64,000 bases of DNA from Daucus carota subsp. sativus (lineage: Eukaryota; Streptophyta; Magnoliopsida; Apiales; Apiaceae), in the NCBI RefSeq assembly GCF_001625215.2, contig NC_030384.2:45790390-45854389 (forward strand), given 5' to 3'. The position numbers were made by a program, and so were the translations under genes. Shown one piece after another: positions 17,642-52,429 of this stretch; positions within the stretch are counted from its first letter, which is position 1; every line of letters begins with the position of its first letter. The notes beneath the pieces were generated by a model. It was not told the origin of the DNA. It ran no database searches and saw nothing but the letters and a program-made list of their open reading frames with translations.

Positions 17642-20473
17642 ATGTCTGAACAACACAAGTCCCGCCCGGTCGGCGGCACAGAGTACAGCTGGTGCAAAGC
17701 AGTCCCCGGCGGCACCGGCATCACTGTCCTAGCCCTCCACTTAACAACCCCTCCCAACATCCCCTTTCTCCAAAATGCCCTCCGCAATCTCCAAATTTCC
17801 CACCCTAACCTCCGCTCCAAGCTCTCCTTCAACTCCACCACACACACCTTCTCACTCGCCACTCCCTCCACCCCTGACGTCACAATCCACGTCAGCGGTG
17901 AATCCTCCACGTCACAACTCATCAACGACTCATCCGAGTCATCACTCACTCCGTTCCAGCTCATCGTCGAGCACGAAATGAACAACAATGCCTGGATCAA
18001 TCAGGATGGCTCAGTTCCCGAGAGCATTGATGTGGTGTTTGTTACTGTGTACAATTTAAGTGAATCGGAGTGGGCTGTGGTGCTGAGGATTCACACGGCG
18101 GCGTGCGATAGAACCGGGGCGTTGTCGTGTTTGAGAGAGATTTTGGGGATGATGAAGAGCGGTGAGGATAGCGGTGGATTTAAAGAAGAGTGGGAGGTTA
18201 GTTTGGGGATTGAAGATTGTGTTCCGGATGGGAAGGCTCATAAGCCGTTTTGGGCACGGGGTGTGAATATGCTTGGTTACTCTTTGAATTCTTTGAGATT
18301 GGCTCATTTGGATTTTGTGGATGCTGAGGTATCGAGATCGTCGCGGTTTGTGAGGTTGAAGATGAATTCGGATGATACTAGTCGGATTCTTTCTGTAAGT
18401 ATTCTTATGTTTTAAGCTAATATATATGTTCAAATTTCACATGAGTTGATTGTGTATGTGTTTGTAATATGAGACTTATCCAGCTACATTGGTGTTTAAG
18501 GGCTTCACAAATTGGTTTTGTATTTGGACTTAATGTGTAGTTGTTGATAAATATCTCTTTTTACAAATTAAGGGTATTCGATGCAGTATATTGTACAGGA
18601 ACCTTGGCAAATAAATTGTAATATTAGCTTTATAAAGATCTCTGAGGGATTGTGTTATTCCAGTTTGGTCTACTGAGAGCATAAAGAAGATTCTGGAATC
18701 TGGAGGTAGTGTTTAGAACTCGACTTATCACCCCTGTAAAAGGTATACTTGGCAATGATTTACGTTGCTCAACCAAAACATATGTTTTAGTGTCTTTCAT
18801 GCCAAGGATCTTAGTGGAATAGTCAAATATGTTGAACATTGGCAGCAGGGGAGCTGTCTTTATTTTGGTTGGCGAGGAGCACACAACACTTGCTAATATT
18901 TATATGATGAGTTATTGTGACAAAAACTGAACAAAAATGATTTTATCTGAAATTAGGATTTTGCAAATTACAAACACTTTTATCCGCAATCTATTATATA
19001 GGATTCCTATTGTCAATAGTGAAAGTATTTATATTAATACTGACTACTGGGGTCAGATTTTCTTTTTTTTGCATCGTAAGAATCTCATATGTGGTGAAAT
19101 TGAGTCAGGGTAGGACGAACAAACCAACAAGTCCTCGAGTTTAATGTTAAGAGGTTCCTAATGTAACAGATCAGGCTCTACTTCTCCTCCTTATTCACAA
19201 CACAGTGTTCACAATTATTGACATACATGTTGAGTACTCAAGTGGGTTTTGTTAGTACTTTAGTGGGTTGAAATGCAAAACCACACGTAAGAAATTCAAG
19301 CACATGTCATTGTGTTGTCATTGTGTGCCTAAAACTGCTAGTAGGGTCATACATGATTGAAAGGATATTTTTTATTTAGTCATTTAGATATAGTTTATAG
19401 AACAGCAGGAAGAGCAATTTATTCAAAGTGATGTTATAGGCTGAACTAAATGTTGTAATTTTTTTGTGACAAAAAAAAATGTTGTAAATTTTTGGCTAAA
19501 TGTCTCTTTCAAGCTGATTATCTTACTAGTACTATATTGTAATTTTGATAGAAATTCGAGAGGCTGAACTAAATGTTGTATATTTTCTACAAAGTCTCTA
19601 GGGAGCTGATTCTATTACTAAATGTAAATTTTAAAGAATTTTGAGTAGATGAATCATGGCAGAACTTTTCATATCATATTCTGGTTTGGAATCCTAAAAT
19701 CCACTCAGTCCTTATTCAGAACTTGCGTATTTTAGGGCTGCGAATCAAGAGGGATAAAACTATGTGGGCTCTTGGAGGCTGCCGGATTAATTGCAGCTCG
19801 TTCCTCGAAAAACCTTCCTGAAGGACAATGGGAGAAGTACTCAGTTGCAACACTTACTGACTGTCGTTCTCTTCTTGACCCAGTACTTACTCCTGGTCAT
19901 GTGGGTAAGTCTGTAGTTGGCTATGAATCATGGTTGTTGGTATTTTTGTGCCTGTGTTGAAGGAGAGAGTTTACGGAGCAAAATGACCCTAACATTAATA
20001 CTTGTGCAGGTTTCTACCATTCTGCCATCATAAATTCACACGACATACAGGGAGGTGAAAATCTGTGGGAGCTTGCTAATAGAACTTACATGGCTTTCGC
20101 TAATGCTAAGAAAAACAACAAACATTTTTCAGACGTGGCTGATCTAAATTTTCTCATGTGCAAGGCCATTGACAACCCTGGTCTGACACCGTCAGCGGCT
20201 CTAAGAACTTCACTTATCTCAGTGTTCGAGGACCCTGTCATTGAACATACTAGCCATTTACGTCAAGAAATTGGGTTGGAAGACTATGTGGGGTGCGCCT
20301 CAATTCATGGTGTAGGCCCTTCTATAGCTCTATTTGATACAATAAGGGACGGGGAACTGGACTGTGCTTGTGTTTATCCGTCCCCCTTGCATTCGAGGAA
20401 GCAAATGGAAGATTTAATTAGTGAAATGAAGCGCATTCTTTTGGATGGTTGCAAGGAAGAGGAGGAAGCTTAG
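17642..20473 (+). CDS. Acyltransferase-like protein, chloramphenicol acetyltransferase fold (condensation/alcohol acetyltransferase-like)
   Basis: Three exons (17642-18394, 19736-19904, 20010-20473) give 461 aa, all in phase. The ATG at 17642 (MSEQHKSRP) is the first usable one; the open frame runs further upstream only by way of a GTG. The N-terminal half shows the CoA-dependent acyltransferase pattern, with a putative active-site His in HTAACDRTGA (residues 151-160). This is spaced HxxxxD rather than the HxxxD of classical BAHD enzymes. The C-terminal half contains a GPSIALFD motif region typical of this plant family. The substrate is unknown. Exon 1 is much more GC-rich at its start (CCC/TCC codons) than later exons, as is common for 5' coding ends. 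The acidic C-terminus (EEEEA) is unremarkable. It is probably a functional cytosolic acyltransferase-like protein; the function is inferred from fold only. Confidence 0.85.
19438..19660. repeat. Tandem duplication in intron 1 of the acyltransferase-like gene; unit 1 carries a short poly(A) insertion
   Basis: The unit starting AGGCTGAACTAAATGTTG occurs at 19438 and again at 19561. Unit 1 contains an extra stretch of about 27 bp, in which TTGTGAC plus an A-run sits between two copies of AATGTTGTAA-TTTTT (about 19449-19464 and 19478-19494). Unit 2 lacks it and so acts as an empty site. Confidence 0.6.
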
Positions 20474-22275
20474 CTTTATACTGTGAGACAACTACATGTG
20501 TTTAGCTATAAAACAGTTCTATATGCAAGGGCTTCTGTAGTCCTGCCCAATGCCCATTCTTGAAAATCAATATTATTAGCAAGACAGAAATCATTACTGG
20601 CTTAAATTTCTTCTGGGTTGCCGATTTGTAGTTGCTCAAGCCTCAAAGTGTTGGGCTCGTCTAGGTCAAGCAAACACGAACAACTGTCATTTTTTAAGCA
20701 AATAACTTGGCTTCTAAACTTGTTTTCACTCTCTGTTAGTTGGTGATGGTTACATTAAGGACTAATAAAATTTTCTCAATAGCTTCTCTATATAAATCTG
20801 TACAATGACCTATATTTTTATATGAAGAATAGCAGGCCCTCAGGTACAATTACTACTACGTTTGAATTTATTACGTAATTTAAAAAATTCTGAAATTAGA
20901 GAAAAAAGCAACATTATTTTAGATTTTTTTATACAAAACTTCAAATATATAATTAATATTTTCCTGTCTTTTAGATTCTTTTGTATTAAAACTTGAAAGA
21001 GATTGTTTGTCAGGGTTGCTTAAAGTTTTTACGACTTTAAACTCAAAAATGTATGTTTATATAATAAGTGTGAAACTCAGTCAGAAATAAGTACAAACCG
21101 ACTTAAAACGAGAAGTTAGTTGACTTAATTTTGTCAAACTTTTTTTTAAATAAAAATTATGCATAAATCATTTTTATTTTTCTTATATTATTAATAACTT
21201 ATAAGTCATTAATAAATTAAAATCACCAGAATAGACATTTTAAACTCCCAACCCTCACAATTTTAAACTCACTCAAACTTTAAAAATTAAATGACTTGTA
21301 TAACATACCACTAAGTATAGCTCTAAAATTTAAATGACTTGTATAAACATACCATGAAGTATACTCATTTGAGATACTCTTGCAGCTAGCAAAACAAAAT
21401 GTTTATTCAGATACAAAGTAGATAAACTATAGCTGTGATTAGTTCGGATACTGTATATGATTGATTCCTTCAGAAAAAATACAAGATTTTCTTCGTGGCG
21501 CATAAATTTTTAAAGGCGGTAGAGCAGAATTTGGTTGACCTGCGCAAACGGAAGAGTGTTTGTGCTGCAACTACCCTGAGAAAAGTAAAGAAATTTAAAG
21601 GCGCCTGCAGGCTGCAGCGCATAAGAAATATTTATCAAGTGCATCATGTTCATGTATGTGTGCCTACCACGATCTGAAAGCTTTTTTTAAGGCATATACG
21701 CTGAGCTAGGACACCGCACCATGTCAGCAAGTCGCTTATGCTTAAAAAACTCCAACTGTGACCGAGTTGAGTCAAGGCAATGTCTATCAGAAATACAAGA
21801 GGAAGTTCCTTGAGGAATATAGAGCAAGCTACTTAACTTAAAATTGTACCTGAAGTTTAGTATTGCACACTTGCTATTATATTACTACTTTATTCTTAGT
21901 TTGTTGGTTGAGTAGTTGTAAATTGTAATGTAACTGTGATATGCTCTATATTTGTTACTACTAAGCTAGGAGGATTTTACAAGGCAGAAGAGGTTAAACA
22001 TGTGTTGTGTTTTAACTGCATTCTTGTTCTGATTGAATCTAGTAAGAGAACAATGAGCTTAACAATATAGTATCATATTGAAGCCGTCTATACAGAGAAC
22101 AAAAACAAACAATGAAAGTATGTATCATCTGTTTGTTTTACAAGATTTACATATTATGGTACTAAGATACCAGAGTACATGTCAACAGACATTCCGACAT
22201 TGCTTCATCCTAAACAAATGTACCTTACATATCATCTTTCAGAATACGTGGTGGGGATTGCAACTATCTATCTAC
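20474..22275. other. Intergenic; short tandem repeat, no gene recognised
   Basis: There is a 43-bp tandem repeat (TTAAATGACTTGTATAA) at 21287-21329 and 21330-21365. A 60-codon plus-strand open frame at 21495-21677 is rich in Arg/Lys and reads like coding sequence, but I cannot assign it. The rest is AT-rich. Confidence 0.45.
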
Positions 22276-22659
22276 CTATGAAAGGAACTCCTCAACCAAG
22301 TTTCCGAAATCAAAATTTCCATTGCAACATTCCACTGCACTTATCACTTCTTGAAATGCAGCGACACTACAAGGAACCACCAATCCACTCATCTGCTTGA
22401 AACCAAACTCTTTGTACGCCTTTTCTAGCAGCATCTTGAATAAAGGGTGAGACAGGTACCCCGTGGGAACGACGAACCTCTTCCTGTCCTCTCCCACATA
22501 CACAGCCAAAAAGCCGGTAGGGGTGGAGTACTGATCATCTTCGTGATCACCACTGTCTTTTAGCAGAGAATGACGTTGCGACTGTTCAGAATCAACCTTC
22601 TTCATAGACTGAACCTTCTTGGCTAGCTTCTTAACCGCATAAAACTTCTTCCCCAACAT
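22276..22659 (-). CDS. SAUR family auxin-responsive protein
   Basis: This is a single-exon, 127-aa protein with the SAUR domain in its central part: TPTGFLAVYVGEDRKRFVVP, then YLSHPLFKMLLEKAYKEFG, and a conserved Pro-Cys after the core. The N-terminus is basic (MLGKKFYAVKKLAKK). Many SAURs inhibit PP2C.D phosphatases and so activate plasma-membrane H+-ATPases for cell expansion; that role is family knowledge, not shown here. The absence of an intron and the small size are normal for the family. It stands alone rather than in the usual SAUR cluster. Confidence 0.93.
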   Translation of the reverse strand: MLGKKFYAVKKLAKKVQSMKKVDSEQSQRHSLLKDSGDHEDDQYSTPTGFLAVYVGEDRKRFVVPTGYLSHPLFKMLLEKAYKEFGFKQMSGLVVPCSVAAFQEVISAVECCNGNFDFGNLVEEFLS

Positions 22660-22784
22660 TCTTTTTGTTTGTTGGGGACAGAGATAATATTCCTAGACTA
22701 TTGTCTTTTGCATTTAGGGAAAGGATGCATGTAGGAGGGACTACTTATTAGTAGGGAATGTCTTCAAGGCAGACTTCTGACTTT

Positions 22785-22792
22785 TTTATATA
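22785..22792 (-). promoter_or_regulatory. Probable TATA box of the SAUR gene
   Basis: Minus-strand TATATAAA lies about 130 bp upstream of the SAUR start codon. Confidence 0.45.
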
Positions 22793-22799
22793 AATAAGA

Positions 22800-23520
22800 A
22801 AAAAATCCAAGCCTTGAGATTTGTCTGTCTTAAATTATAATTTTAACGTAATATAAAAATTAGCTGCTCTCACATCTTGATTTATTGCATTCACCTAATT
22901 TGACGTGTTAACATCTGTGAAGAAGAAATCAATCATATAAAATTGCACAAATCAACACTTAACCTATTATATGCAGGTACAATTGTACATAATGTGAGTA
23001 CACAGTGCAGGCCAAAATCCAACCTTATATAGTTGTAGTTGGTTTAAGATTCCCTGTCATCCGTAGCTTATGATCGATAATTATTCATATTAAAATCAAC
23101 GTTTAGGGATATTTATGAGAATTACATGAATATAAAGCAAGGTCTGCCTATTTTTCATGTCAATGAAACAAGTCGTCAGAAACAACATCAATAACAATTT
23201 TACTGGATCTTTTCCTTTAGCCTGTAATAAGAGTGCCGAGTGCGAGGTTTAATACTCAGGTTTGTGATATACAATTTCTGCAACTGCAAGTCTGCAATCG
23301 ATTATTAGAAATAGTTATAAATATAAAGCTAACGAATGTCTACAGATTAGAGTTCGCATGAAAATTTTGTAATATATTAATGTAATGGTTCTTCAAGCGG
23401 CCGAGTTTAAGTTATGAATAAGAGTCGCCGTGTAAAGTGTAAACTGAATGATATATATAAAAAAACTATCTCAGTCAGAATTAAGGTGGGAATCCAGAAT
23501 GATCGATGACGACGAAGTGG
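22800..23520. other. Intergenic, nothing recognised
   Basis: This is AT-rich sequence between the SAUR promoter and the hAT-type element. No open frame or bounded repeat could be supported. Confidence 0.4.
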
Positions 23521-23528
23521 TGCAGGAC

Positions 23529-24075: not shown

Positions 24076-24476
24076 TGCAGGACTAATAGTTGTGGGGGAC
24101 ATGAAGACACTAGTTGGTAGGCATCCCAAGCTTATAACCAAAATTAGTCAAACAGATGAAAGGCACACGAGAGCGAACCTGTGTCGCATTTTAAAAGTAT
24201 TTTATTACCTATGTCGTATGATTTCCTCTTAAAAGATAATAAAAATCTACGTCGTATGATTTTCAAAGTAAAAACAGATTACATTTTGTAAACTTAACTA
24301 TATAAAAAGGAGTAGATCAGTACCATAGTTTTGTCGAGGTGAAAATAACTTCTCTTTTTTTTTTAAATTCTAACTGTCATCGAGCTTGATTTTGATTGTT
24401 ACTGCTTTGTTAGTGACTAGCGAGGGATTGAAGCTGCAATATAGTTGAAATGCGGAAACCTCGATCCTCATGAGTC

Positions 24477-24761
24477 ATGTCTATAATCTATATGCTGGCC
24501 AACAGGCCAACAAATGGGACATGGGCAGTTGGCCATTTGTGGTGTGCTCTGGTCTTTGGAAAGAATATAATTGTGGTCAACACTCGAGGATGTTATGGAT
24601 TTGACCTCGAGTATAGCGACGGTTCGCAGTCAAATGTTTCAGCTCCAAAGCCTCTTGCCGTTCAGATTTATGGTTTGGTTTGTGGAACGTGGTTACCGGT
24701 TACATCTAGAAATTGGAAATTTGTCATCAACCAGATTCACGATTTATTAGATATTAACTGA
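24477..24761 (+). CDS. Unrecognised open frame, 94 aa (doubtful)
   Basis: The frame has balanced codon use and a plausible protein composition (several Trp, Gly and Cys), unlike the surrounding AT-rich DNA. I recognise no family. There is no clear TATA box or splice context. It may be a remnant of a captured or decayed gene, as may a minus-strand 60-aa frame at 24870-25052 beside it. Confidence 0.2.
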   Translation: MSIIYMLANRPTNGTWAVGHLWCALVFGKNIIVVNTRGCYGFDLEYSDGSQSNVSAPKPLAVQIYGLVCGTWLPVTSRNWKFVINQIHDLLDIN

Positions 24762-25810
24762 ATTTTCTTTGAAAAATTGATTTTTTTTATCAAATCACAG
24801 TTAATCAAAAACTTTTAAATAAATCAAATATGTTTAGAATACTGATACACATGGATTGATTATCTCTCATCAGTTGACTGAACAGTTCTCTTCTGTTGTG
24901 CTAATAATTAATAACGAGCCAGATAGCCAGGATCCTCCTCCAATGGTCCTAGATGGCTCGGCAACAAGGTAACCAGCTTCAAAATCCTCTGCAAATCTGC
25001 CGAGCTTCTTTCTCTCGCTGCTTGTATACTTTGTTAGAGCATCTCCAACCATCTAAAACCCTTGGCTAAAAGTTGAGTTGGCATACCTAAAATAAAAAAA
25101 TTTAGCCAACAGTTCCAAAAACTCAACTCCAACCATGCTCACCTGTTACCTATAAATTTAGCCAACCTCTTATGGATGACTAAATTTGTCGAACCTCTAC
25201 AGGTCTGTAAGAAAATCTGTAGGAAGATTGTACATCATTTATTACCATATTGAACTGATATATTCTATTTTAACAATTTAAAATATTTATAACATACTAT
25301 TTTTAAACTAGGTATTTTTGCCCGCGCTTCGCGTGCTGTGCATCTATTAAAATTTTGTTTTTTTTTATTCATATTTTTTATATTGTTTTGTTGTTTTGTT
25401 GTTATGGTTATATTTTTACTTAATCAATTATTTTTACTTATATTTTTACTTAATCAAATATTTTATTTAATCAATTATAAATTTTCTATTACTTAAATTT
25501 ATTTTATTTATAAATGACACGGGTCAAATTAAATTATTAAATTACTATTTTATTATTAATATGAATAAATATTATATACGTCATCAAAATATTATTTTAT
25601 TAAAAATAATAATTATTTTCATGTGAAACATTGAAAAAAGAAATTAATTCTTATAAAATTCTATTAAGCATAATTTATTCATCTACATGTCTATTCAAAG
25701 AAAAGCTCAAACATTCTACCATCCTTGAAAATCACTTTTTTGGACTGAATAAAATCACAATATACAATTAATAAAATTAATAGAAATATTCTCTTAAATG
25801 ATGATATCAA

Positions 25811-25855
25811 ATAAATTACAAACTCCCTGACCAAAAAAAAATAAATTACAAACTC
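25811..25855 (+). repeat. Micro-insertion: CCTGACC(A)8 between 15-bp direct repeats
   Basis: ATAAATTACAAACTC occurs at 25811-25825 and 25841-25855. Between them lies only CCTGACC plus eight A. This has the layout of a retroposed poly(A) stub with a target-site duplication. Confidence 0.6.
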
Positions 25856-26876: not shown

Positions 26877-26956
26877 GAAATCTGGAGAAGAGAAGATTAT
26901 TATCAGTTTCAAATTGATTTGAAATCTGGAGAAGAGAAGATTATTATCAGTTTCAA
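26877..26956. repeat. 36-bp direct repeat, 44-bp period
   Basis: GAAATCTGGAGAAGAG... occurs at 26877-26912 and again at 26921-26956 inside the Helitron, with no differences seen. Confidence 0.8.
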
Positions 26957-26969
26957 GTATATTTATTAC

Positions 26970-29197
26970 CTCCTTTTATCAAGGTTTGATGTTTAGATAC
27001 AGGTAGAGAATCCTCGGCAAACCTCTGCGCATACAACTGCTCTATTCCCGGACCTCTTCCTCTACGTCTGGCAGTTGTGCTTGCTGTAATACATGTCGGA
27101 ATTACCAAAGCTGATATATATTTGCGTTCAAAAACTACATTAAAATGTTTTACATATTAAACAAAAGCCTGACCATCTGAATTTCCACGTGCTACATTAA
27201 AGTCTTTCATATCAATACAAATTAGGACGTGAATGTAAATTGCTTACATTGCGAGATGTGAAATAGTAAATCCTTGTTTTGAGCTTCCAGAAGTTAATTA
27301 TGCCTAGACCTCTGCCTCTTCACTTTTGAACTGATAAGTGTAAATTTAAGACGAAAAATTCACATTAAATTTTTCCTGTAAATTGAATAGTAGAATGAAA
27401 TATGAGATGATACCTGAGTTTATTGTGTTTTCATGTCTAGTTTCGAAATCAGAAGCATTTGATTGGAGACTATTGATAGCAACAAATCTAAAATCTAATG
27501 ATAACAACAAATTCCTAAATTATGAGAAACTGAATCACTTAAAGATTATTGTAACAAAGGAAATTAAATTGGATTTTAATTGGAGAAAAATTGCTAAAAT
27601 ATGAATCATGACAAATTGGAATCCTTGTATACCTGCTGGTTTTTTCCGGTTATTATTGCTGGTTAGTAGCCATGAAACTTCAAGTATTTCTGTAGTATCC
27701 TCACATTGTTTGTTTGGCCACAAAGAAATTAAATAACATAAATTTCAATAATAACAAAATTGCTAAAATATGAATCATGACAAACCGGAATCCTTATATG
27801 CCTGCTGGTTTTTTTCGGTTACTACTGCTGGTTAGCCATGAAACTTCAAGTATTCCTGTAGTATCCTCACCATTGTTTGTTTGGCCACAAAGAAATTAAA
27901 GAACATAAATTTCAATAATAATAAACCTTGAACAATATTAACTCTTTACAAATTATATTTCACTACATTATATAAAAGATTATATACACAATTAGCTAAA
28001 ACTATATTGTAGGGATATGAAATTGTTCCCATATCAGGTGCAGGAACATCTGTCACCAATCAGATCATGTATCTACTGCATAAAAACTATGCTAATTCAT
28101 TCTAGCTCAAAAATACTCCCTCTTTTAGCACCACCGTAAGGCACTACTCTTTTCCAAGTCATTAGTATGCTGACGCATTCACCTCGTCAGGATCAACCAA
28201 CAAACATCTGTCAGTCCAGTTATTTTTGGCCATTTACGACCCAAATAGATTTTAATTTCGATATGATCCTTAAATTTATACTACAAACCATTTATACTTT
28301 TTAATGTTGAAAGCAAGAACCTTATACCATTGAATAGAGCATGCTAAAAGAGAGAACAAATATAAGACTAAGCAGAGGCTGGTAACGACCTACATTACTC
28401 AACCAAATAGAATGCAACAAACTAAACACTTATAGTTTACACATGTATGAGCCCAACTCTCCTCGATGATTATTAAATTACCTTCGAAAGTTTAATCATT
28501 ATAGGGCATGGAAACATGCATGAGTTAAAGAAAGAACTAATCCTGACATAACATAACAACAACACATTTCATTTGTTAGATTAGCCAGGAAGGACTATAC
28601 TTTGTTTCTGGAAGATAATATTAACATTTATACCACATGCTTTTCTCTTGGAACCTGATCAACCATGCAACAACAAAGCAATATCCCAAACAATATTCCC
28701 AAGAAATATCATAGAGTAATAAAATATTTTATCAAATTAGCTACAGAAAATAACTAATGTTTAAAATTCACAGAATTATCACCCATTTCAATTTTCTTAC
28801 CATTTAATTTTGTGTCCATTAGTGACATAGTTTGATCCTTGGCATTGTGATCAACGACAATAAGAGAAGTTCGCTGTGAACAATGAATGGCAGAGGATCA
28901 CAAGTAGAAATTCATGGCCTGCTTGTAACTATTAAATTTAAAAGTCACCAATATATAGTGTTTTTTTTTATGTTAATAGTACTAACCATTTGAAGGCAGT
29001 GAAATCAAGTTTTGAGAAGGAGTATGGACTATGTTAGCAATTTCAGATGTATGGTCTATAGACGGAAAAAGATAGTAAATGGTGTAGCCTTTAACATCAA
29101 AAAGAAGATTAGCGTCTATTTGTTGAACAAAAGCATGCCGCAATTTAGAACTCTGTGCAATGTTCACCTCCTCGATTAGCAGATGTGCAGTTACCAC
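26970..29197 (-). pseudogene. Exon-like segments inside the Helitron, possibly from an RPA-type gene
   Basis: Several minus-strand blocks are open throughout and bounded by AG and GT: 29197-28987 (211 bp, includes KGYTIYYLFPSID), 28873-28801 (includes TSLIVVDHN) and 27083-26970 (includes TTARRRGRGPG). The strand agrees with the Helitron's own direction, and plant Helitrons often carry an RPA-like (OB-fold) gene, which is why I suggest it. However, the first two blocks do not join in one frame as read, and I could not find start and stop. It may be a decayed RPA gene or captured host exons. Confidence 0.3.
27587..27924. repeat. Tandem duplication, two ~169-bp units, containing an exon-like block
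   Basis: Units lie at 27587-27755 and 27756-27924 and begin AAAATTGCTAAAATATGAATC. They differ by scattered substitutions and a 3-bp indel. Each contains, on the minus strand, an open block ending RKKPAG at a possible splice donor. Confidence 0.85.
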
Positions 29198-32146: not shown

Positions 32147-32692
32147 AATTAATATATTGAATTTTGAATTTTAAATTTAGTGAATCATAATACAATGAAT
32201 GCATATCAATATTCGGATTTATTACATTTTCAAATGCTAGCACTGATTATGGGATTGATTGAGCAAGTGTAATATATAATAAAATCTACTATTTAAAAAT
32301 TTCCATACGTAACACACTTTTATATGTAAAGTGTATCCCAAGCATTAATACGAATTAAATAAGTAGAACAATATAAGCTTTTTAAATTATGAAGAGCACA
32401 CTTTTAATACCTCCAAATTAGTAATCTACAATTAATAATTAATATATATAATTACAAATGGGTTAACGGGTCGGAGCAGGCAAATCAAAAAGAAAATGAC
32501 CGAAGTACCCTTATTTTGTATGGGAAAACCAAACTCTTCACTAGCACCCATTAAGAATATATAGATTATAGCCAACCAATATAGCCAGTACCATTGAAGC
32601 AAAATGTCTTACAGGTTCAGCAAATTTTACATAATGTCTTACAGGTCCAATTTAGCCAACGATTATAGCCAACGCGGTTGGAGATGCTCTTA

Positions 32693-37358: not shown

Positions 37359-37412
37359 GACATGTGTCTAGCTTTTTTTTTTTTTTTTTTTGACAGGACA
37401 TGTGTCTAGCTT
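37359..37412 (-). repeat. Micro-insertion: CTGTC(A)n (minus strand) between 16-bp direct repeats
   Basis: GACATGTGTCTAGCTT occurs at 37359-37374 and 37397-37412. The 22 bp between them are a T-run plus GACAG, i.e. CTGTC followed by about 17 A on the minus strand. Confidence 0.65.
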
Positions 37413-38689
37413 AATTATAAAAAGTTAATCGAACAACTATTTATCTAATAATAGTTTCATATGAAACAATTAATTCAATTTTTTCAATCAACCAGTTAAA
37501 AGAGCTAATTCATTCCATTGATCGCCAAACAGGTGATAATCATTCCACGGAGGCTGATGAGTGATGATGATAGTATTCGCATTCATGCAATTGAATTGCA
37601 ATGCTTCTTAGTTCTATGGCTCTCGGGGTTCATATTAAATCCTTCATAAAACAGATACAGGCCTACAGCCTGCAGATGATTATAACTAGGGAGTAGATTC
37701 ATTATTTTTTTTGTGTGAAGCCAGGCATGCTCAAGCAAATTCATTACTAGAGGCTGATTCTCTTTCCAGGGAAAACAAGTCTTTTGCCATTCTCTTGAAT
37801 AAGCAAAATGGAGCTCTTACCTAATCACCCAAAAGTTGATCAAAAGTTAAATCAGTTGATCACAGGTTCATGCAAGCTGGACCTAGGACTGAGAAGCTAT
37901 TATCCTAATTCCTACCATAATGTAGATTTAACAATTGGCCTAACTATTTCTTAGAATACAAGCATAGCCTTGCGCTATGTTTGTTTGGGGATCATAACAC
38001 AAATTATAAACCTATCATCAGTATAGGATTTTTGTTGAATAATATACACGTCAAGCAGCTCAAAATTACTGTGACATGGTCCCGTAAAGATGCCGAACCT
38101 TCAAGTTTGCCAAACTGGCGTGGTCCAAACCTATGTAATAGGCATATAGTTGTCCAAGTCTTGTCATCTCAACTAGGATCCTTTAAGTCGACTTTACTGG
38201 AAAAATCTGCAACATTCATACCTCTCTAATTTTCTAGAAGACTATAAACATTATACAAAAATATAATCCAAGGAGCTATTACTTGGAAAAAGAAAAGTTA
38301 GCTAGCTAGTCCTTCAATTTGGTCCCTCGAACACCAAAGCTTGTACTGCTAAACTGGCCACTTAGCCCGGACATATACTGCTAAGCTGCACCTAGCTCTT
38401 AAGTATAATACGTACATACATCATTTGATAATTCATGCTCTTTTATGTGAATGGGAAACAAATTAACATCCGAACTTTAAAATTTTTTTTTAGTCCCAAA
38501 CTGTATGTATAATCAGTCACATAAATATTTCATTTCGAATTAGTGTTTGATACAAAATTTGGTATAATTTTCAGATAGCGTGACACTTGATTTGATAATA
38601 TGAATTTTTTTTGTCGAAAATATTGATGTGAACACAGTTTAGCAGTTCAATCTGGGAGAAATAAAATATTACATATTAACATGGAGTAA

Positions 38690-38745
38690 TTTGTGTACCA
38701 GAATTTTATTTAGCAAAAAAAAAAAAAAATTGTGTACCAGAATTT
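38690..38745 (+). repeat. Micro-insertion: TATTTAGC(A)15 between 16-bp direct repeats
   Basis: TTGTGTACCAGAATTT occurs at 38691-38706 and 38730-38745. The 23 bp between them are TATTTAGC plus fifteen A. Confidence 0.7.
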
Positions 38746-39123
38746 ATGTGTTCTGTAAATCTGTAATGCACTAGATTAAAAAGGCACTGTACTTAAACTA
38801 AAGTTGATGACGTAATAAATAATACGTGATACCACAGTCCATACTGCATCCTACTGGTTCCTCGTCATCTCTGTCTTCTCCTCCAAGCTCAATATGTTTC
38901 CATCTCATCTCAGACAATGATTAGTTACACCAACAAAGGCGGAGAAACCCTCCCCTGTTCACAGTCTCATACTTAAATATGTTGTACTACGTAGTATCAT
39001 ACATGCAGGAGAAACATTAAATACAATAAGAAGAATGAAGAGAAGGGTAGATTTAGAGAAAGATCAGCTGTCATAGTCAGCTGTTTGGTTTAGTGTTTAG
39101 CGAGTCCTCATAGTAAATCATTA

Positions 39124-40904
39124 ATGAAGAAAGATAGTAGGGAAGCTGGAACCATGGATATCGGGGCGCCTACAAACGTAAGACATGTAACTCATGTCAC
39201 CTTTGATCGATTTAATGGCTTTCTTGGCCTGCCCCTTGAGTTTGAACCTCAAGTTCCCAGAAAGCCACCTAGTGCAAGGTCTGATATCCGTGTTTTTATC
39301 TCTTTTATATAATTTATCCCGTGTCTTTCGATCTGTTATGTTAAGCAGGACTTGTTGCCACAATTATGAAGAGATTCCTTTCATATGCAAGAATTTGAAG
39401 TAGACTATAATAAATTTAAAGCAAAATACTTTAATTGATGGAAATGGCCTTTGGATCAGGTGTGTTGCTGAGAGAGATTCGTGCTATTTGTTTCTTAAGA
39501 CAGTTTTTAGCTTATTTCTCGGGGCCTGATGTGGATACTTGATTAATTAAAATGGATGAACTTGAATCTGTGGTATCCTATTTGAGTCTTGTATTGTATA
39601 GCTCACATAAATGTGTTTTTTCATCATGTAGTTCAAGTGTGTTTGGAGTTTCAACAGAATCAATGCAGCTTTCATTCGATTCCAGAGGGAACAGTGTGCC
39701 CACGATACTTTTGATGATGCAAAGGCGTTTATATGAGCAGGGAGGTCTGCAGGTGGTGTTTTCGTCTTAACTAATTGTTTTACTCTCTTAATACTGTAAC
39801 ATCGGTATTAATCTGAAATAGATGTTGAGTTTTGACACTTCTGTGCAGGCAGAAGGGATTTTCAGAATAAATGGCGATAATGGACAACAAGAGTCTACAA
39901 GGGAACAACTAAACATGGGACTGGTGCCAAACAACATAGATGTGCACAGTTTAGCCTGTCTGATCAAGGTGGTGCTGTTTCAGTTTAAACATTCTAATTA
40001 AAAGGCAGTCTGGAGCCTTCAGTTTACCTTGGAAATTTGTGTTTTTGTTACTCTAGGCTTGGTTTCGGGAGCTTCCAAATGGAGTATTGGACACTCTAGC
40101 ACCAGAACAAGTCATGCAGGCTCAGTCGGAAGAGGATTTTTCTCAGCTGGTGAGGCACCTTCCACCAACAGAAGCTGCTTTACTGGATTGGGCAATTAAT
40201 CTGATGGCTGATGTTGTTGAGATGGAATTTTTTAACAAAATGAATGCTCGCAATGTAGCTTTGGTGTTTGCACCAAACATGACGCGGGTAAGCAAAAACT
40301 TGTCAAGTTCATAACACAATCGGCATAGTCCAGAGGAGTCATAACGTTGATATATATAATATTATTATCTTGTTGATTGCAGATGGCGGATCCCTTGACA
40401 GCGTTAATGCATGCAGTGAAAGTGATGAATTTTCTGAAGACACTTGTTGAGAAAACTATGAGGGACAGAGAAGACTTTGTAGTGGAAACGGGTCCTGCAT
40501 ACGACTCAGAGCCTTCAGATGAAATTGAGGACAATCCCATGTCTTTGCGGTCAATGATTGAGATAGAAAATGAGATGAGTGAGTTGGAGAAAGCATCGAT
40601 GAACAAAAAACCACTATACTATAGCTCTGCAGACCTTTCTTCGGTTGACTCAGAGCCTGAAATCAAAAATGATCATGCATCTATTATGCGCACTACTAGC
40701 AAAGGGAAATCTGAAGGGGGTCAAGAGAAGCTGAAGTTGAAGACGCCAATGCGCAGAGTTAGATATTGTGAATCATGCGTGAAGAAAGGGGATGGGAAAG
40801 GCACCGAGCCTTCAGAGATTCGCCGTACAGGAGGCAAGAGCAGGAGAGCATTCACTACTAGTCGCTCCAATTCAAGAACCGAGAGAAATGCGGCCTGGAG
40901 ATGA
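39124..40904 (+). CDS. CRIB-domain Rho-of-plants GTPase-activating protein (RopGAP)
   Basis: This protein stimulates GTP hydrolysis by ROP/RAC GTPases, switching off polarity and growth signalling at the plasma membrane. Exons 39124-39278, 39632-39752, 39849-39968, 40057-40287 and 40383-40904 give 382 aa, all in phase. The CRIB motif occupies about residues 12-45 (MDIGAPTNVRHVTHVTFDRF, then GLP). The RhoGAP domain follows, with the arginine finger in AEGIFRIN (Arg98) and the NLMADV...NARNVALVFAPN helix region. The C-terminal ~150 residues are acidic, then basic (ending SRTERNAAWR), with no known fold. The N-terminus before CRIB is only about 11 residues, shorter than in many RopGAPs, so a missed upstream coding exon is possible. 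The stop at 40902-40904 is clear. Confidence 0.92.
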
Positions 40905-41683
40905 ATGGTGAATCATGTTTGTTACATAATTGGAGTGTCAAGAGTGGATATCATCAAGTAACGGAGCGTTCGTGCAGTGATTTTTGGATATCAGAGTATC
41001 TATCATAATATATTATGTTTCTTTTCTTAAAGCGTGTTTAAGTATTTTCCCCTTCTATCTCAATTGTCGATCATACATTCTCTGTTATAAAGTGATACTA
41101 AATTCATTTAGATGCTCAATGCAGGCTACAAGGCAGCGCGTTTGAGCGTTAATACCTAATATCACGAGTTTGGCCTATATTGAAAACAATTGATCAAATT
41201 ATGAAATTTTAATATCGAATGTAACCATTTCAAGTTTTAGTCAACTTTATTGGTTTGTTCAGATTGCAATTCTCCAAAAACCAAAATGAAACACCAGCAG
41301 TGTTTTGGAGACCACACGTAGCCTATGTTTCAGGTGGACCGTGATTGCAATCTTGCCCGAAAGAAACATGCATCTCCACAAACAAAGGGGTCTCTGAACT
41401 GGTCATTCGGATTTGGTGTCTTTCTGTATTCAATCAAGTATAGAAACTTTATTGTCCAATTGTATGTTAAAGCAAGTTTTGTGGTTTGCCGACAAGTGTG
41501 AGGTGCTGCATTCTTCTCAGAGAATTCAAACTCCGCGTTCATAATCTGTAACTAAACCACACTTTACGTTACATGTAATCCCTTCAAGCCTATGCACATT
41601 GGAAAAACGAAGAGTTTCAGAATCATAAACATTCTAGCCTATCTAACCAATAAGTCCGCTTAACAACATCATTATTATAAAAA

Positions 41684-42024
41684 ATGATGGACGCCAGTGA
41701 TTCATTTCCGGCTGCTGATGCAGAAAAAGAGTTGAATCCGGGCACCAACACGGAAGTAGAGGTTGATTCTGTTTCATCTGAAATCGCAGAGAAGAAAGCG
41801 GTAGGCAGTTTTTGTTGTCACGTCGATTATATAGGCAATTCGATGTGAAAAAATATGTCGTAATATTAATGTGAATGCAGGAAGGCAGTGCAGGGAAGAA
41901 GGAGAAAGGAAAGAATGATCCAATGCAAACATTTAAAACAACCATGATTGTCTCAGGAGTGGTCATTGTGGTGCTTGCTGTAGCTTTGGCCGTATCCAAG
42001 AAAATGAAAGAGAATAAAGCTTGA
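41684..42024 (+). CDS. Small single-pass tail-anchored protein, copy 1 (86 aa)
   Basis: Two exons (41684-41800, 41881-42024) encode 86 aa. The N-terminal half is acidic and Ser-rich (SFPAADAEKELNPG). A basic stretch (GKKEKGKND) follows, then one hydrophobic helix of about 20 residues (MIVSGVVIVVLAVALAV) and a short basic tail ending KENKA. This topology suggests a C-tail-anchored membrane protein. I do not recognise the family. A clear paralogue lies at 52430-52774 with the same intron position and nearly the same C-terminal half. The start has two adjacent in-frame ATGs; the first is chosen. Confidence 0.75.
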
Positions 42025-42696
42025 TGAGTTAGATGAGAAATCACCTGGAGACAAATCAACACGCCTAGATGCTAGATTCAGCTCAATTTTGTATTTCTTT
42101 CATAAATTTCAGTTGCCCACAGTCTGTGCGTGGCTTTTAATTTAAAGAAACATTGATCTTTCTCTAATTTTGTAGTAAATGTTTATATGTTATTATTTTT
42201 TATTTTTATTTTTGTTAGCAGTTTCTTGAGAATGTAGGCTGTTGCCTGGGGCTGGCAGCCATGCCCATGAGGCATCTCCGGCCTCCAGGATCGATTTAGG
42301 TATTCTTAGCAGATCTCCCACTTATTTTTATGTACTTTTTTCCACGGATTTCTTCTATAATCTATATTAACTTTTTGTATCTGAATAAAAATCTAAATAT
42401 AATATTTTGTTTAGGAGATAAAAAATATAAATAAATTATAGAATTATATTTTATAAAAATATGGGGATAATAAAAAAGTCAACAATATTGAATCTTTTAG
42501 CTCAATGGGAGAACACTGGTCCTCTGATCATTTTTATTTTTATCTATCAAACACCTATTTCTCAACCTATAAAAGAACAAGTAATCCTTGCCTAACAAAA
42601 TATATGTATGTTAACAAGAAAGCATTTTTTTCATTTTAAATCTGTGATACAAATTTAACTTGTTTTAGATCAATGGAACAAATTTAACTTGAAATC

Positions 42697-42746
42697 AACA
42701 CATATCCATATAATTCCATCCAAAAAAAAAACACATATCCATATAA
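42697..42746 (+). repeat. Micro-insertion: TTCCATCC(A)8 between 17-bp direct repeats
   Basis: AACACATATCCATATAA occurs at 42697-42713 and 42730-42746. Between them are only TTCCATCC and eight A. Confidence 0.7.
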
Positions 42747-42850
42747 ATTTAATCCGACAAAACAATTTCATCTGAGAAAATTAATCGATCAGGAATAGGG
42801 TTACATAATTATACTTTAATATCTAATTGACCTTAAATAAATTGTCAAAA

Positions 42851-42851
<1 letters not shown>

Positions 42852-42927
<76 letters not shown>
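42852..42927. repeat. (ATT)n microsatellite, about 25 units
   Basis: This is an uninterrupted trinucleotide run of about 74 bp, roughly 100 bp upstream of the probable PPTase transcript start. It is likely length-polymorphic. Confidence 0.95.
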
Positions 42928-43032
42928 TCTTCTGCTAAATAATCTGATTACTTAAAGGCGAGCAAACGGCCGTTACGGCCCTATGCCCCTATTGGCTACT
43001 TGAATCAAGACACGCGCACTCCGATTACTCCC

Positions 43033-43640
43033 GTAAGCTCTCTTCCTTTGCTACATCATCTCTACTAAATTGATCTTCAATTGAATTATCTTCATCGTTT
43101 AATTGAATTTATGCAATTCATTATATACTTACATACATACATATGGTTTCTTTATGACTATGTGGTGTTGACTATTAATTTTGTCTAGGGCGACTTCCCC
43201 AAATTTGTACACTACAATCTCTTAAGCAAATAATAGGTGATTCTGAACAACAGAATGTGATTGTTAAAGTATACGAAACACGAATCGAGTGGTATACTTG
43301 TTGTTACATGATTACTCGAGTATTGTGACTTGCACTAGGTTTTGATTACTCAAGTCATGTTACTTTACTGTAATTCAACTTCTTGTATCGTGATTTCACA
43401 TTACCAGCTTGTTTCGCGTATAATTTAGTGCTGAATTTTGTAGTATATGATTTGCGGAATTCTCATACATCTGCTTTGAGTTTTTATTTTTACACGGTTG
43501 TTACTCTGTAAATTTATGCATAAAGACAATCGATTATAACATTTCAGTAGAATCAGATAAGTGATTAGGAGGTAGTAGAATTTAAAATTACTAGTGTTGA
43601 TTATGACAGAACATAGCATTCTGGAAGGACTATTGAGCAG
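43033..43640 (+). other. Probable 5'UTR intron of the PPTase gene
   Basis: The donor GATTACTCCC|GTAAGCTC and the acceptor ATTGAGCAG| lie 12 bp before the ATG at 43653. The intron is about 608 bp. The exon wording before the donor resembles the leader of the hnRNP-Q-like gene (GATTACTCC). Confidence 0.4.
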
Positions 43641-43652
43641 CCTTTAGGATTT

Positions 43653-46600
43653 ATGTTTTCACGCTTGCGTGGAGTAAGATTCACGATGAGGATGCAATGC
43701 CTGGATACAAAATTCTTTACTTCAACTTCTCTGGTGCCAATGCAACTTCCTTCCCGAATGTATGATTTGGTGTTGCAATTAAGTTAACATGTATTTCTAT
43801 ATTTTATGTGATCTTTATCTGGGGGTTAGTTATCGGTACATTCAGGACCTCTTGCTACTTTTCTTGCATCATTATGTAATATACTTTCTGAAATGCAGGG
43901 AAACTCATCTTTGGTATGTTAAACCTAATGAAGTAAAGAGTGAACAACTCTTAAACAAATACTTGGAATTTCTGCCAAAGTCTGAAAAAGAACATGTTTT
44001 TAGCATGCGTGGTGATGAATTGCGAAAAGGAGCTCTGCTTGCTCGTGCTCTTGTTCGAACTACCATTGCGAGATGTATGACTAACTGATTTTTATCTTGA
44101 TCTTCCTTTAATTTCATACTCAAGTTACACATTTAGATTTATCAGTCTTGCAAAAAGTAAACTTAGTCTTATCTAGATAATTGAAAGATGATTATGATAA
44201 TCTGAAGATGTCTACACAAATTTTCAAATTATGCTGGAAGCATATACTATTACTTCTTGTAACATCTTCTGATGATGACAAGATATTAAAGATTAATAAT
44301 TTTGGAAACACCGGAACATAGGTCATTGGGTTCATATTTTCTTTTACAATTCCTGGCTGTTGATAACTTGCACAAAATGTTCAGTCAACTCATTTGATTA
44401 CCGAATTAATATTTTCTCTTCCTAGATCAGATAAATCAAGTTAGTCCAAGGTCTTTGAAGTTTAGGAAGAACATCCATGGGAAGCCTGAGGTTTGGGTGC
44501 CATATGTTGTCTGTACCGTAACTCTTTTCATTTACACGTTTACTAATCAATAATCATACACTAAAAACTTCAGCCTTTAACATATTTATAGGTAGACTGG
44601 CAACAGATAGAGGATTGGCATCCTCAACAATTGCATTTCAATATTTCACATACCGAATCTCTAGTAGCATGTGGAGTGACGACGCATAATCCAGTTAGTG
44701 ACTATCAATTTGTTACTCTGCGTAAAATACATATCTTTGAAGCTTATCTTGTAAACAGGTTGACATAAAATTTCCTCTTCCATTTTTGTTAAAGTAATGT
44801 ATTTACGCGTTTTCATTAACTTCTGGATATTAGATTGGCATAGACATAGAAGAAAAGGAACGGAAGATTAAACACAGCATCTCATCATTTGCTAAAAGAT
44901 ACTTTTCCCAGCAAGAGGTGCAACTATTAAGTTCTATTTCAGACCCCGAAATTCAGCGCCAGGAGTTCATAAAATTATGGACGCTCAAGGTTAGCCCTGT
45001 TATTAGTTCCACTATTGTATGTGTCTTATTCCTTTGTAAAGCAAAGGCTTACAGTTTTGGATTTTTGTATTAAGTTGAGCTTTACTGCCTCTTTGTGTCT
45101 TAATGTCTTAATTCTTTCTTAATAATTTATTTATGTCTTTAGTTCGAATAGTTAAAAATGTAAAAGTATGTGGAACAATCTCACAACATAATAGAGATAG
45201 TTTACTAGACATAAGTCTACAAAGTTCAAAAACTTAATTTTTACGATCGATTAGCTGGATTCCATATTTCCATGGCTCCAAATTTTCTCTATTTTGGGTC
45301 TTCGTCTTCAAGAGTTTAAGTTTTAAGAAAAAGCTCAATTGGTTTGCGTCTGGGGTGGATGGTTATTCATCCAGCGCCTCGCATGAAAAAGCAGTTCTTC
45401 CCCTACTCCGTCCCATTTTATTTGAACCACTTTCCTTTTTTGGATGTCCCAAAAAGAATGAACCTTCCGTTTGTATCATCTTTTTAAGATTATTACAACC
45501 ACACATTCATAAACTACACTCGTTTAATATCCACTAACTCTTTTCATTTGGTTAAAAATAAGTCAAACATTTATTCCTTAAAATCCGTGCTAGTCAAACA
45601 AGCTCAAACAAAATGGGACGGAGGGAGTAGTACATACCAGTGTACCCTTCGATGAAACGTGCGGCTCGCATCTCAAGCGAGGCTACATGTGAGACGCAAA
45701 TGGAGAGAGGACTGTATATTCGCATATAACTGCTACTCCTTTTTTGTTTGAAATTCTTCCTACTTTTTTGCCGCTTTGCTACTCGCATACAACCTTTACT
45801 CTTTTTATTGAAATTGTCCCTACTTGTGAACTGCCTTTTGCAGCACATAGCATACGATAAGCCTCCTGACTTGGCTTTAGATTCTGGGGAAAATATTTAT
45901 GAAATTCACATTCCCCCCTTATTTTTAAAGTACTCAAATCTATCTGGAAGTACACCTCAGAATTGTGAATATAGTACTCCTTTATCCAAGGGCTATCAAA
46001 GTCAAAGTTCTATGTGTTTTGATTGCAGTTTTTAAGCAAAAGTAGGTGATATTTTTAAAAAAGTGTGATTCAGAATGTAGATATAGTTGGTTGTTATACT
46101 TTTGCTTAGCAAAATGTTATGATGGTTTTAAAATATTCTTATGTGTCTCGTAAATTTACATTTATAATTCTTTCTATAGGGAACTATGCAAAATGCTGAT
46201 ATTTTCTATTTGGCTGTATACATTACTTTGAAATATCTTGTGCATTTATTTTTTGATGAAGATACATCACTGTTATACACACCATGTAAGCAGACACCCA
46301 CACACATACTTATGTCTATTTAGTTTCTCTATCAGTAGTGCTAGTTGGTTATGTATGATTTGTGAAGTAGATACATCAATTACAATATTTCCTTGCATCA
46401 ATTACAATATTTCCTTTAGACTTCACTGACCTGGAAATCTATATTCAGGAGGCTTATGTTAAAGCATTAGGTAGGGGATTTTCTGGATCACCATTCAAAA
46501 CGTTTACCATCCGGTCTGCAGCTGCTAGCAAAGAAAGCATTCATCTTTCTGAAAGTTCCAGTTTTGAGGTATTTGATCACCTCTGGGCTCTGTTTAGGAA

Positions 46601-48185
46601 TCAATTTCTCCATGTTGCTATGCTGTCATTAAATTATGTTGCTTACTTATTGCCATAAGTTTTGAGTTAAAAACATAGGCCTGGTGAATTATCGTCGTAT
46701 CAAAATATTCTAGTACTCAGATTAAGTGATAGAATAGATGCAGTTTTTTTAATGTAACATCGTGCCTCTTAAGAGTTAAGGTAGGCGAGTAAAGGTTGTG
46801 ATTACACTTTTTCCTTACATAATAAGCCAAAAGAAAAAAAAGATACCACAAATGATACTTATTTCTGTAAAATAGTAAGAAACTAAATCTAATAAAGAGG
46901 TTTTCCCCTCATGTAAAGAATAGAAGAAAGCTGATTAACATGTTTTAATTAAAATTGTAACAAAAATACAGTATCAGTACTAATATTATAATAAACATTA
47001 AATAGAAATATTAAAGTAATTTAATATAAAATTAGCATAAGAAGGTTTTATTGGCTGTGGACGTTGTTAACTATTTAGGATCTTAACCTCATATACTATT
47101 ATAAAATATAATCTTATGTATTTCCTAGCAACCAAAAATATTGCCAGATTCAAGGAACATATTTAAAGTCTAATAAGAAATTTGTCAACAAGTATTACAA
47201 ATGAATTAAAATCCAATATATAAATACTAAATGCAATCTAAACTTTGATTATGGTAAGCAATTCAAAATGCCAATTAAAGATTTAGTAAAAAAAAGCCAA
47301 TTAAAAATTTAGTGAAAGCGTAGGAATTTCGTCTTATCTAAGTGAATATATGGGGAGTTGTGAGTGTTTTACTCATTCTCCACAAATATAGGTTTATTCC
47401 TTTATTTCCCCCCCTTTCCCACCCACCATTGTCCTTCTTCGATAGTACATTCTTTCTTAAGTATTTGAGACTTTGAGTATTGTACAAATTATTTTTGTGC
47501 TTTAAGAAAGTCCAAAATGTTCTGTTATTCTTTCAATGTTCGTGCTTGGTGCCATTTTTAAGTGGTTACTTGTTAGTTATTACGATCAGGTCATAAGATT
47601 GAACCTTGGAACAAACTTTTGTGAAAAATTAAAGAAGATTGCACTTGCGTACATGAAGATGTTTTCAAAAACCTGCTGTGGTGGCAGTCTTATGTATCAG
47701 GCACTGATTTTTTTTTTTTTTTTTTGAGAATAGGCACTGACTTTTGTTAAGCTTGTCGAAGATGTTCAGTTATATTATGCATACAATTTCACATAATATT
47801 CATTAATTGTTAAACGTACTAAAAGGCTTCAAATATGCTGTCAGAATTCTGACATAGTGGTCGAGTCTTTAGAGGATTCTACCAACCACACAGGCGATTG
47901 GCAATTTGCACTCTTGGAATTGGCTGGGTCTCATTATGCTGCTATTTGCTCAAGAAAGGACTGTGCCAATATAGGTAGGTAAATTGTAATATGTTCTTTT
48001 TTTTTTTTATGAATATTGTGGCAATGTAGAAAGTAGAAACACATATTTAATAAAGAAAACTGTGTCATTGAACTTTAGACAAAAGCCATCCTATGAAAAT
48101 TGGAGTGTGGAGGACAATTCCACTTGTTGAAGATGAATATGTTTCCGGGACTAATTCTGTCATCGCCGTTGGGGGGCTAATGTAA
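43653..48185 (+). CDS. 4'-phosphopantetheinyl transferase (holo-ACP synthase, Sfp type), probably mitochondrial
   Basis: This enzyme transfers 4'-phosphopantetheine from CoA to a conserved Ser of acyl carrier protein, activating it for fatty-acid synthesis. Eight exons (43653-43759, 43899-44074, 44426-44490, 44592-44693, 44834-44989, 46449-46568, 47845-47974, 48079-48185) give 320 aa, all in phase. Motifs are intact: FNISHT at 132-137, GIDIEE at 152-157 (Mg2+ ligands) and W199-T-L-K-E-A-Y-V-K with GRG at 210-212. The first 35 residues (MFSRLRGVRFTMRMQC...) are Arg/Ser/Thr-rich with one acidic residue, which fits a mitochondrial presequence. The Arabidopsis mitochondrial PPTase is, as I recall, At3g11470. 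Intron 5 holds a Stowaway MITE, and intron 6 holds two micro-insertions. A downstream Met (residue 12) is an alternative start. Confidence 0.93.
45404..45627. mobile_element. Stowaway MITE in intron 5 of the PPTase gene
   Basis: The left end CTACTCCGTCCCATTTTATT mirrors the right end AAAATGGGACGGAGGGAG. TA flanks the right end. It is about 224 bp and intronic, so the coding frame is unaffected. Confidence 0.85.
47270..47313 (+). repeat. Micro-insertion: (A)8 between 18-bp direct repeats
   Basis: GCCAATTAAAGATTTAGT (47270-47287) recurs with one mismatch at 47296-47313. The spacer is eight A. It lies in PPTase intron 6. Confidence 0.5.
47699..47740 (-). repeat. Micro-insertion: ATTCTC(A)18 (minus strand) between 9-bp direct repeats
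   Basis: AGGCACTGA occurs at 47699-47707 and 47732-47740. Between them are a run of about 18 T and GAGAAT. It lies in PPTase intron 6. Confidence 0.6.
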
Positions 48186-48580
48186 GTAGCAATTTTGTGC
48201 TAGTTAACCAACCGATTATTATTGTTGCTGGCATGATGTAATCAGGATTTCAGATTGGTATTGCAAGTATTTAACTAATGGTATTGAATGCATCTCAAAT
48301 CGAGATAAATTGGTCCTCTTGATCTTGTATATAGGGATTACAACTTCAACTGTGTAGACTAGAGAGGTTAATGAGGTACGACATTTGATCTAACTGATCT
48401 GGACTGTATTGCAATTGTAATGCTTACAATTATTTATATGAAAAGCAAAGATTGCTGTTGTACACTCTTTTACATAGAACCTTGCATAGTGAAAGTATGT
48501 TGCTACTCATATATATCAGTGTAATTTTTACACCTAGATAGAAATGTAGTAATATTTTTAAGAGTTTGATATAATGTCAA

Positions 48581-48635
48581 AAATCACCTGTTCGTTCTTT
48601 ACCAAAAAAAAATAAAAAAAATCACCTGTTCGTTC
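48581..48635 (+). repeat. Micro-insertion: TTTACC(A)n between 17-bp direct repeats
   Basis: AAATCACCTGTTCGTTC occurs at 48581-48597 and 48619-48635. The spacer is TTTACC, nine A, T and more A. It lies between the convergent PPTase and PPR genes. Confidence 0.7.
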
Positions 48636-52399: not shown

Positions 52400-52429
52400 T
52401 TTTCTGAATAGGCTTCCTAGAAACAAAAA

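What the first reader, a model, noticed from the sequence alone, without database searches (positions are those of the whole stretch)
19438..48635. A recurring micro-retroposon pattern: few bases ending in C, an A-run, and 9-18-bp flanking repeats
At least seven sites share one layout: a direct repeat, 4-8 bases whose last base is C, 8-18 A, and the same direct repeat. They lie at ~19449-19494, 25811-25855, 37359-37412 (minus), 38691-38745, 42697-42746, 47699-47740 (minus) and 48581-48635. An eighth (47270-47313) has only A between the repeats. The pre-A words are GTGAC, TGACC, TGTC, TAGC, ATCC, TCTC and TACC. The base before the A-run is C every time; if C, G and T were equally likely, seven of seven would be about 1 in 2000. 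The layout is that of target-primed reverse transcription with extreme 5' truncation, leaving almost only the tail. LINE/SINE truncation is established; a dense population of stubs under 25 bp with a C-ended junction is, to my knowledge, not a described class.
Basis: partly seen in the sequence, partly recalled or inferred. Interest (0 to 1): 0.75.

Follow-up and report, generated by a model that had tools for sequence, protein, structure and literature searches.

The report
Tail-only retroposon stubs in a plant
A 64-kb piece of what looks like a flowering-plant genome carries eight tiny insertions that are almost nothing but a run of A's between two copies of the target DNA, the footprint expected when a LINE-type enzyme starts copying an RNA from its poly(A) tail and quits almost at once.

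Summary
All eight sites are in the sequence: seven have a 4-8 base word ending in C before the A-run, one is pure A. Seven of the eight flanking repeats are 16-19 bp, one is 9 bp. The layout is far above shuffled sequence and has one polarity: the A-run abuts the 3' copy. In 5 of 8 sites the target reads YY|AA, close to the L1 nick site TT|AAAA. One site (19448-19494) has a neighbouring paralogue without the insert. No longer A-tailed, repeat-bounded insertion scored above shuffles, local duplications apart. Best explanation: L1-type target-primed reverse transcription with near-complete 5' truncation. The kind is known: simple poly(A) insertions in human disease genes, and A29 with a 15-bp duplication in dog RPGRIP1. 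What may be new is their density in a plant, the lack of longer partners, and the C junction. No genome is held for this window, so nothing could be tested genome-wide.

The parts
19448..19494 (+). Stub 1: repeat of 17-18 bp with a 1-base indel between copies, word TGAC, A9, repeat
19561..19645 (+). Paralogue of the stub-1 site, starting 123 bp downstream, without the insert and with one repeat copy: paralogous empty site
   Evidence: joined flanks score 84.6, filled allele 64.6; 71 identities, 13 mismatches, 11 gaps; best of 1,000 random stretches 34.5
25809..25855 (+). Stub 2: 17-bp exact repeat, CCTGACC, A9, repeat
37359..37412 (-). Stub 3: 16-bp exact repeat, CTGTC, A17-19, repeat
38691..38745 (+). 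Stub 4: 16-bp exact repeat, TATTTAGC, A15, repeat
42697..42746 (+). Stub 5: 17-bp exact repeat, TTCCATCC, A8-10, repeat
47270..47313 (+). Stub 6: 18-bp repeat with 1 mismatch, A8 only, no word
47699..47740 (-). Stub 7: 9-bp exact repeat, ATTCTC, A18, repeat (shortest repeat)
48579..48635 (+). Stub 8: 19-bp exact repeat, TTTACC, A9-T-A tail, repeat; a similar ACCA8TAAAA begins at 48665
27802..27833 (-).

Best explanation
Each site is the product of one L1-type target-primed reverse transcription event that aborted almost at once. An L1-clade endonuclease nicks the bottom strand at a YY|AA-like site. The T-rich 3' end primes on the poly(A) tail of an RNA (LINE, SINE or mRNA). The reverse transcriptase copies 8-18 A and at most about 8 bases of the RNA body, then stops or is displaced. 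Second-strand nicking 9-19 bp away and repair leave [target][few bases][A-run][target]. Shown here: the anatomy, the excess over shuffles, the polarity, the nick-site bias in most sites, and one paralogous empty site. Inferred: the enzyme, the source RNAs and the reason for early abort.
For: Strict layout: 6 hits against 0 in 100 shuffles, none with T, G or C runs. Scans for inserts up to 8 kb (exact repeats of 13 or more) and 10 kb (one mismatch, against 5 shuffles) found stubs and no longer A-tailed insertion that is not explained by a local duplication. Seven of eight repeats are 16-19 bp. YY|AA at the first nick in 5 of 8 sites against 9.7% expected after allowing for automatic leftward extension into A, P = 3.8e-4; the looser Y|AA gives P = 0.0095 (the motif was worded after seeing the sites). 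The joined flanks of 19448-19494 align with a neighbouring paralogue that has no insert and one repeat copy. Retrocopies with L1-like hallmarks occur in dicots (PMC4838847, passages), and plant L1-clade LINEs are proposed to have relaxed, poly(A)-based template recognition (PMC3747384, passages and section 4.3).
Against: Three of 8 sites (38691, 47270, 47699) lack the YY|AA motif. One repeat is only 9 bp and scores at noise level in the alignment scan. The insert of 48579-48635 resembles sequence 60 bp downstream, and a 12-mer of the 19448 insert recurs at 18915, about 550 bp upstream, so local templating is possible there. No source RNA was identified. No LINE protein was matched in the 18 of 71 listed ORFs that were scanned. 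The only empty site is a paralogue, and no orthologous allele could be fetched. The polarity control shares the limits that made that scan miss three sites.
Confidence: 0.75

Rival explanations
1. Patch-mediated double-strand-break repair: two staggered nicks, fill-in and end joining duplicate the overhang, and a short filler, by chance or by local templating A-rich, is inserted between the copies.
For: Short-gap duplications without A-runs are also common here: 21 exact repeats of 12 bp or more with 4-45 bp gaps against 0.18 per shuffle, of which 5 are stub sites and 16 are others, several of them tandem arrays. Tandem duplications attributed to patch repair are reported as the commonest insertions in rice (PMC7971508, passages). 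A local source is possible at 48579 and 19448.
Against: It does not predict A8-A18 fillers, the single polarity (no T-run counterpart), repeat lengths bunched at 16-19 bp, or the YY|AA bias.
Confidence: 0.15
2. The A-runs grew by replication slippage inside pre-existing short tandem duplications.
For: A-runs do slip: A28 and A29 variants of the dog RPGRIP1 insertion are reported (PMC3520932, passages). The two tandem units around 27802 differ a little in the bases before the run and in its length, so some drift occurs there.
Against: Slippage explains length changes but not why the run abuts the 3' copy at each listed site, nor the words. The paralogue of the 19448 site has one repeat copy and no A-run.
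Confidence: 0.05
3. The C-ended junction marks one specific source: a LINE or SINE lineage whose RNA body ends in C, with abort at a fixed place. This concerns the template and is compatible with the best explanation.
For: C in 7 of 7 listed words; 7 of 7 drawn from the window's 48 A-runs of 8 or more has probability 2.6e-4.
Against: The strict hit at 27802 has G. Bases before the C differ among sites, so no common 3' end beyond one base is visible. CA makes up 31% of poly(A) sites in Arabidopsis and 33% in poplar (PMC3832601, table passage); mixed mRNA templates would then give 7 of 7 with probability about 0.002-0.004 and 7 or more of 8 with about 0.01-0.02 (my arithmetic).
Confidence: 0.12

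Closest known systems
Simple poly(A)/poly(T) insertions by human L1 (3 of 48 disease insertions in an earlier survey; one of about 120 bp in NF1; PMC3219598)
   Same: Insertion that is almost only a tail; the authors count it as L1-endonuclease mediated and say it may be a severely truncated Alu, L1 or processed pseudogene (passages)
   Different: Tails in the NF1 series are 60-178 bp, here 8-18 bp; here a 4-8 base word precedes the tail at 7 of the 8 listed sites; here eight lie in 64 kb
Dog RPGRIP1 cord1 allele (A29 with 15-bp duplication; PMC3520932)
   Same: Poly(A) run flanked by a direct duplication of target-site length (passages)
   Different: A single allele in one gene; no word before the A-run is mentioned in the passages seen; no word beginning with 'retro' was found in the text, so the authors do not call it a retroposition there
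L1-like retrocopies of dicots (Arabidopsis, cassava; PMC4838847)
   Same: TTAAAA-like target, poly(A) tail and TSD in some young copies; one cassava copy has a 15-bp tail, a 13-bp TSD and TTAAAA (passages)
   Different: They carry recognisable gene sequence, and by the authors' account only that one copy fits the standard L1 model fully; the stubs carry 0-8 bases
Patch-repair tandem duplications of rice (PMC7971508, citing Vaughn and Bennetzen 2014, which I did not read)
   Same: Short direct duplications ascribed to repair of adjacent nicks (passages)
   Different: No A-run or polarity is mentioned in the passages seen

Membership tests
L1-type (TPRT) retroposed insertions | Direct target-site duplication of L1-type length | tested here: met
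   7 of 8 are 16-19 bp, one is 9 bp
L1-type (TPRT) retroposed insertions | A-tail abutting the 3' copy, one polarity | tested here: met
   8 of 8 listed sites; no T-run counterpart in the strict scan
L1-type (TPRT) retroposed insertions | TT|AAAA-like nick site | tested here: inconclusive
   YY|AA in 5 of 8, P = 3.8e-4; Y|AA P = 0.0095; 3 of 8 do not fit
L1-type (TPRT) retroposed insertions | Empty allele with one copy of the target | tested here: inconclusive
   1 of 8 sites has a paralogous empty site; orthologous alleles not available
L1-type (TPRT) retroposed insertions | Insert matches the 3' end of a known RNA | not testable with these tools
   Words of 4-8 bases are too short and no genome is held
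Simple poly(A) insertions | Insert is only an A-run between target duplications | tested here: inconclusive
   Strictly met by 47270-47313 only; the other 7 have a short word
Patch-mediated duplication | Filler of no fixed composition or polarity (definition recalled) | tested here: not met
   A-run and polarity are constant at the listed sites

The most novel reading that the evidence does not exclude
In this plant an L1-type machinery aborts so often that tail-only stubs outnumber longer retroposed copies, leaving thousands of sub-25-bp insertions that repeat annotation misses. The frequent C would mark the point where the enzyme meets the first body base of a preferred template and falls off.
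Probability: 0.17. Interest if true: 0.6.

Novelty: new variant of a known kind. Interest (0 to 1): 0.4.

Why it matters
If such stubs are as frequent genome-wide as in this window (8 in 64 kb), they would be a large, unannotated class of small insertions and a direct record of where and how often LINE-type reverse transcription starts and fails in plants. They would also be clean presence/absence markers. In mammals, single alleles of this kind break genes.

Tried and rejected
Whole-genome search: no genome is held for the window. Rfam at gathering thresholds: 0 matches. ARAGORN with the bacterial code: 0 tRNAs. Set aside as local duplications: 17139-17217, whose insert repeats the flank (0.83 identity), and 51129-52060, inside the tandem duplication at 50584-52399. 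The longer-insert mirror control gave one hit; its repeat lies at 50855 and 51775, in the same duplication. An empty paralogue for 42697 in the 41.7/52.4 kb duplication failed: the alignment ends at 42055/52814. The mirror control was not usable because it re-finds the same sites. A scan of 952 A-rich tails for older, decayed stubs gave 42 at score 10 or more against 1.6 per shuffle. I looked through the 22 printed there and the other 20: known sites, the 17.2 and 25.4 kb tandem arrays, AT-rich matches, the MITE-like copy at 1981 and the filler duplication at 24213; I added no older stub from it. Literature: 10 searches; searches returned nothing. None of the titles and abstract starts listed described a plant census of tail-only stubs, but phrase searching is narrow.

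It is now reported as a candidate with a G-ended word. For that reason I lowered the C-source rival from 0.15 to 0.12, the novel case from 0.20 to 0.17 and interest from 0.42 to 0.40. I also corrected the paralogue identity.
Full report
What the window is. It is 34% G+C and its ORFs match Pfam families for GH32, auxin-responsive (SAUR-type) protein, PPR with DYW deaminase, and glutaredoxin. The GH32 fragment's best PDB matches include cell-wall invertase CWINV1 (the listing names no organism). Two repeat copies contain TACTCCCT, an end that I recall from plant Stowaway MITEs. I take it as plant nuclear DNA, probably eudicot; no call names the species. No genome is held for it, so the tests below rest on 64 kb.

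The observation. All eight sites are present. With repeats extended to their maximum, seven are 16-19 bp and one (47699) is 9 bp. Six are on the plus strand and two on the minus strand. Seven have a short word whose last base is C; one has none. Differences between the two copies are one 1-base indel (19448) and one mismatch (47270). The other six pairs are identical as delimited, so they look young, although a scan that needs matching repeats favours young sites.

Chance. A strict scan of both strands gave 6 hits, five of them listed sites, and missed three of the eight through its limits. One hundred dinucleotide shuffles with 6,176 A-runs gave none, and T-, G- and C-runs in the same layout gave none. 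An alignment scan of 200 A-runs put six listed sites at 14-18, 19448 at 11.5 and 47699 at 9.0. The maximum in 6,757 shuffled runs was 12. So 47699 rests on the strict adjacency scan only. Exact repeats of 12 bp or more with 4-45 bp gaps number 21 against 0.18 per shuffle; five are stub sites, and the other sixteen include tandem arrays and a few filler-bearing duplications without A-runs. Duplication with insertion thus arises here by more than one route, and the A-run class stands out by content and polarity.

A ninth candidate. The sixth strict hit, 27802-27833 on the minus strand, has a 9-bp repeat AACCAGCAG, the word TAGTAACCG and an A-run. It lies in a tandem duplication (27554-27719 and 27720-27886), and both units show the layout, so it predates that duplication. 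Its target reads GGCT|AACC, which fits YY|AA, but its word ends in G. If it is a stub, it supports the mechanism and weakens the C rule to 7 of 8.

Size spectrum. The same layout with inserts up to 8 kb (exact repeats of 13 or more) gave only stub sites. With one mismatch and 10 kb, ten entries exceeded the best score of five shuffles (21.2). Seven are listed stubs. The others are the 17139 tandem array, 51129-52060 inside a tandem duplication, and 19438-19581, made by the stub-1 paralogue. Old long elements with decayed repeats would be missed, and 64 kb is small.

Mechanism. After allowing for automatic extension of a repeat into A's, the first nick reads YY|AA in 5 of 8 sites against 9.7% expected (P = 3.8e-4); the looser Y|AA gives P = 0.0095; three sites fit neither. 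The motif was worded after seeing the sites. It resembles TT|AAAA, also used as a hallmark for dicot retrocopies, of which the authors say only one fits the standard model fully (PMC4838847, passages). The 19448 site has a paralogue 123 bp downstream (19561-19645). With the flanks joined it aligns with 71 identities, 13 mismatches and 11 gaps (score 84.6; 64.6 with the insert left in; best of 1,000 stretches elsewhere 34.5), and it has one repeat copy and no insert. This is a paralogous and not an allelic empty site.

The C junction. C precedes 17 of 48 A-runs of 8 or more, 10 of 41 outside the seven sites. Drawing 7 of 7 from the 48 has probability 2.6e-4, post hoc. With 27802 the count is 7 of 8. 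If the templates were mRNAs, the poly(A)-site table of PMC3832601 (passage) gives C shares among UA+CA+GA of 31/75 in Arabidopsis, 33/73 in poplar, 24/86 in potato and 28/80 for the plant average. By my arithmetic 7 of 7 then has probability about 0.002, 0.004, 0.0001 and 0.0006, and 7 or more of 8 about 0.01, 0.02, 0.0008 and 0.004. The preceding bases do not agree among sites. At 48579 an ACCA8TAAAA lies 60 bp downstream, and at 19448 a 12-mer of the insert recurs 550 bp upstream, so these two C's may be of local origin.

Distribution. Six of the eight sites lie within 11.3 kb (37.4-48.6 kb); uniform placement does this with probability 0.017. The extent was chosen after seeing the sites, so this is a lead only.

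Known or new. Tail-only insertions are described in mammals: three simple poly(A) insertions among 48 disease insertions, and a ~120-bp poly(T) in NF1 (PMC3219598, passages); and A29 with a 15-bp duplication in dog RPGRIP1 (PMC3520932, passages). Maize LINE discovery asked for TSDs around 3-10 kb blocks with a LINE protein motif (PMC2774510, passages), so I infer that stubs like these were not sought there. The listings of my ten searches showed no plant census of them, which is weak evidence of absence. I class these as a short-tailed, dense plant variant of a known kind, with a C junction that remains to be tested.

Noticed in passing
27554-27886: Tandem duplication of about 166 bp whose two units both carry the candidate ninth stub with a G-ended word.
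   Followed up: partly
50584-52399: Tandem duplication of about 907 bp (86% identity) that starts at the 5' end of the PPR-DYW ORF on the minus strand.
   Followed up: no
41679-42054 and 52425-52813: Dispersed duplicate of about 380 bp (73% identity); it ends before the stub at 42697.
   Followed up: partly
24213-24262, 21287-21346, 32603-32646: Short direct duplications with non-A-run fillers between the copies, candidates for patch-type repair.
   Followed up: partly
37359-48635: Six of the eight stubs fall within 11.3 kb, a possible hot spot (P 0.017 with the extent chosen afterwards).
   Followed up: partly
59645-59835: Two 90-bp units, 96% identical, starting 101 bp apart: a young tandem duplication.
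   Followed up: no
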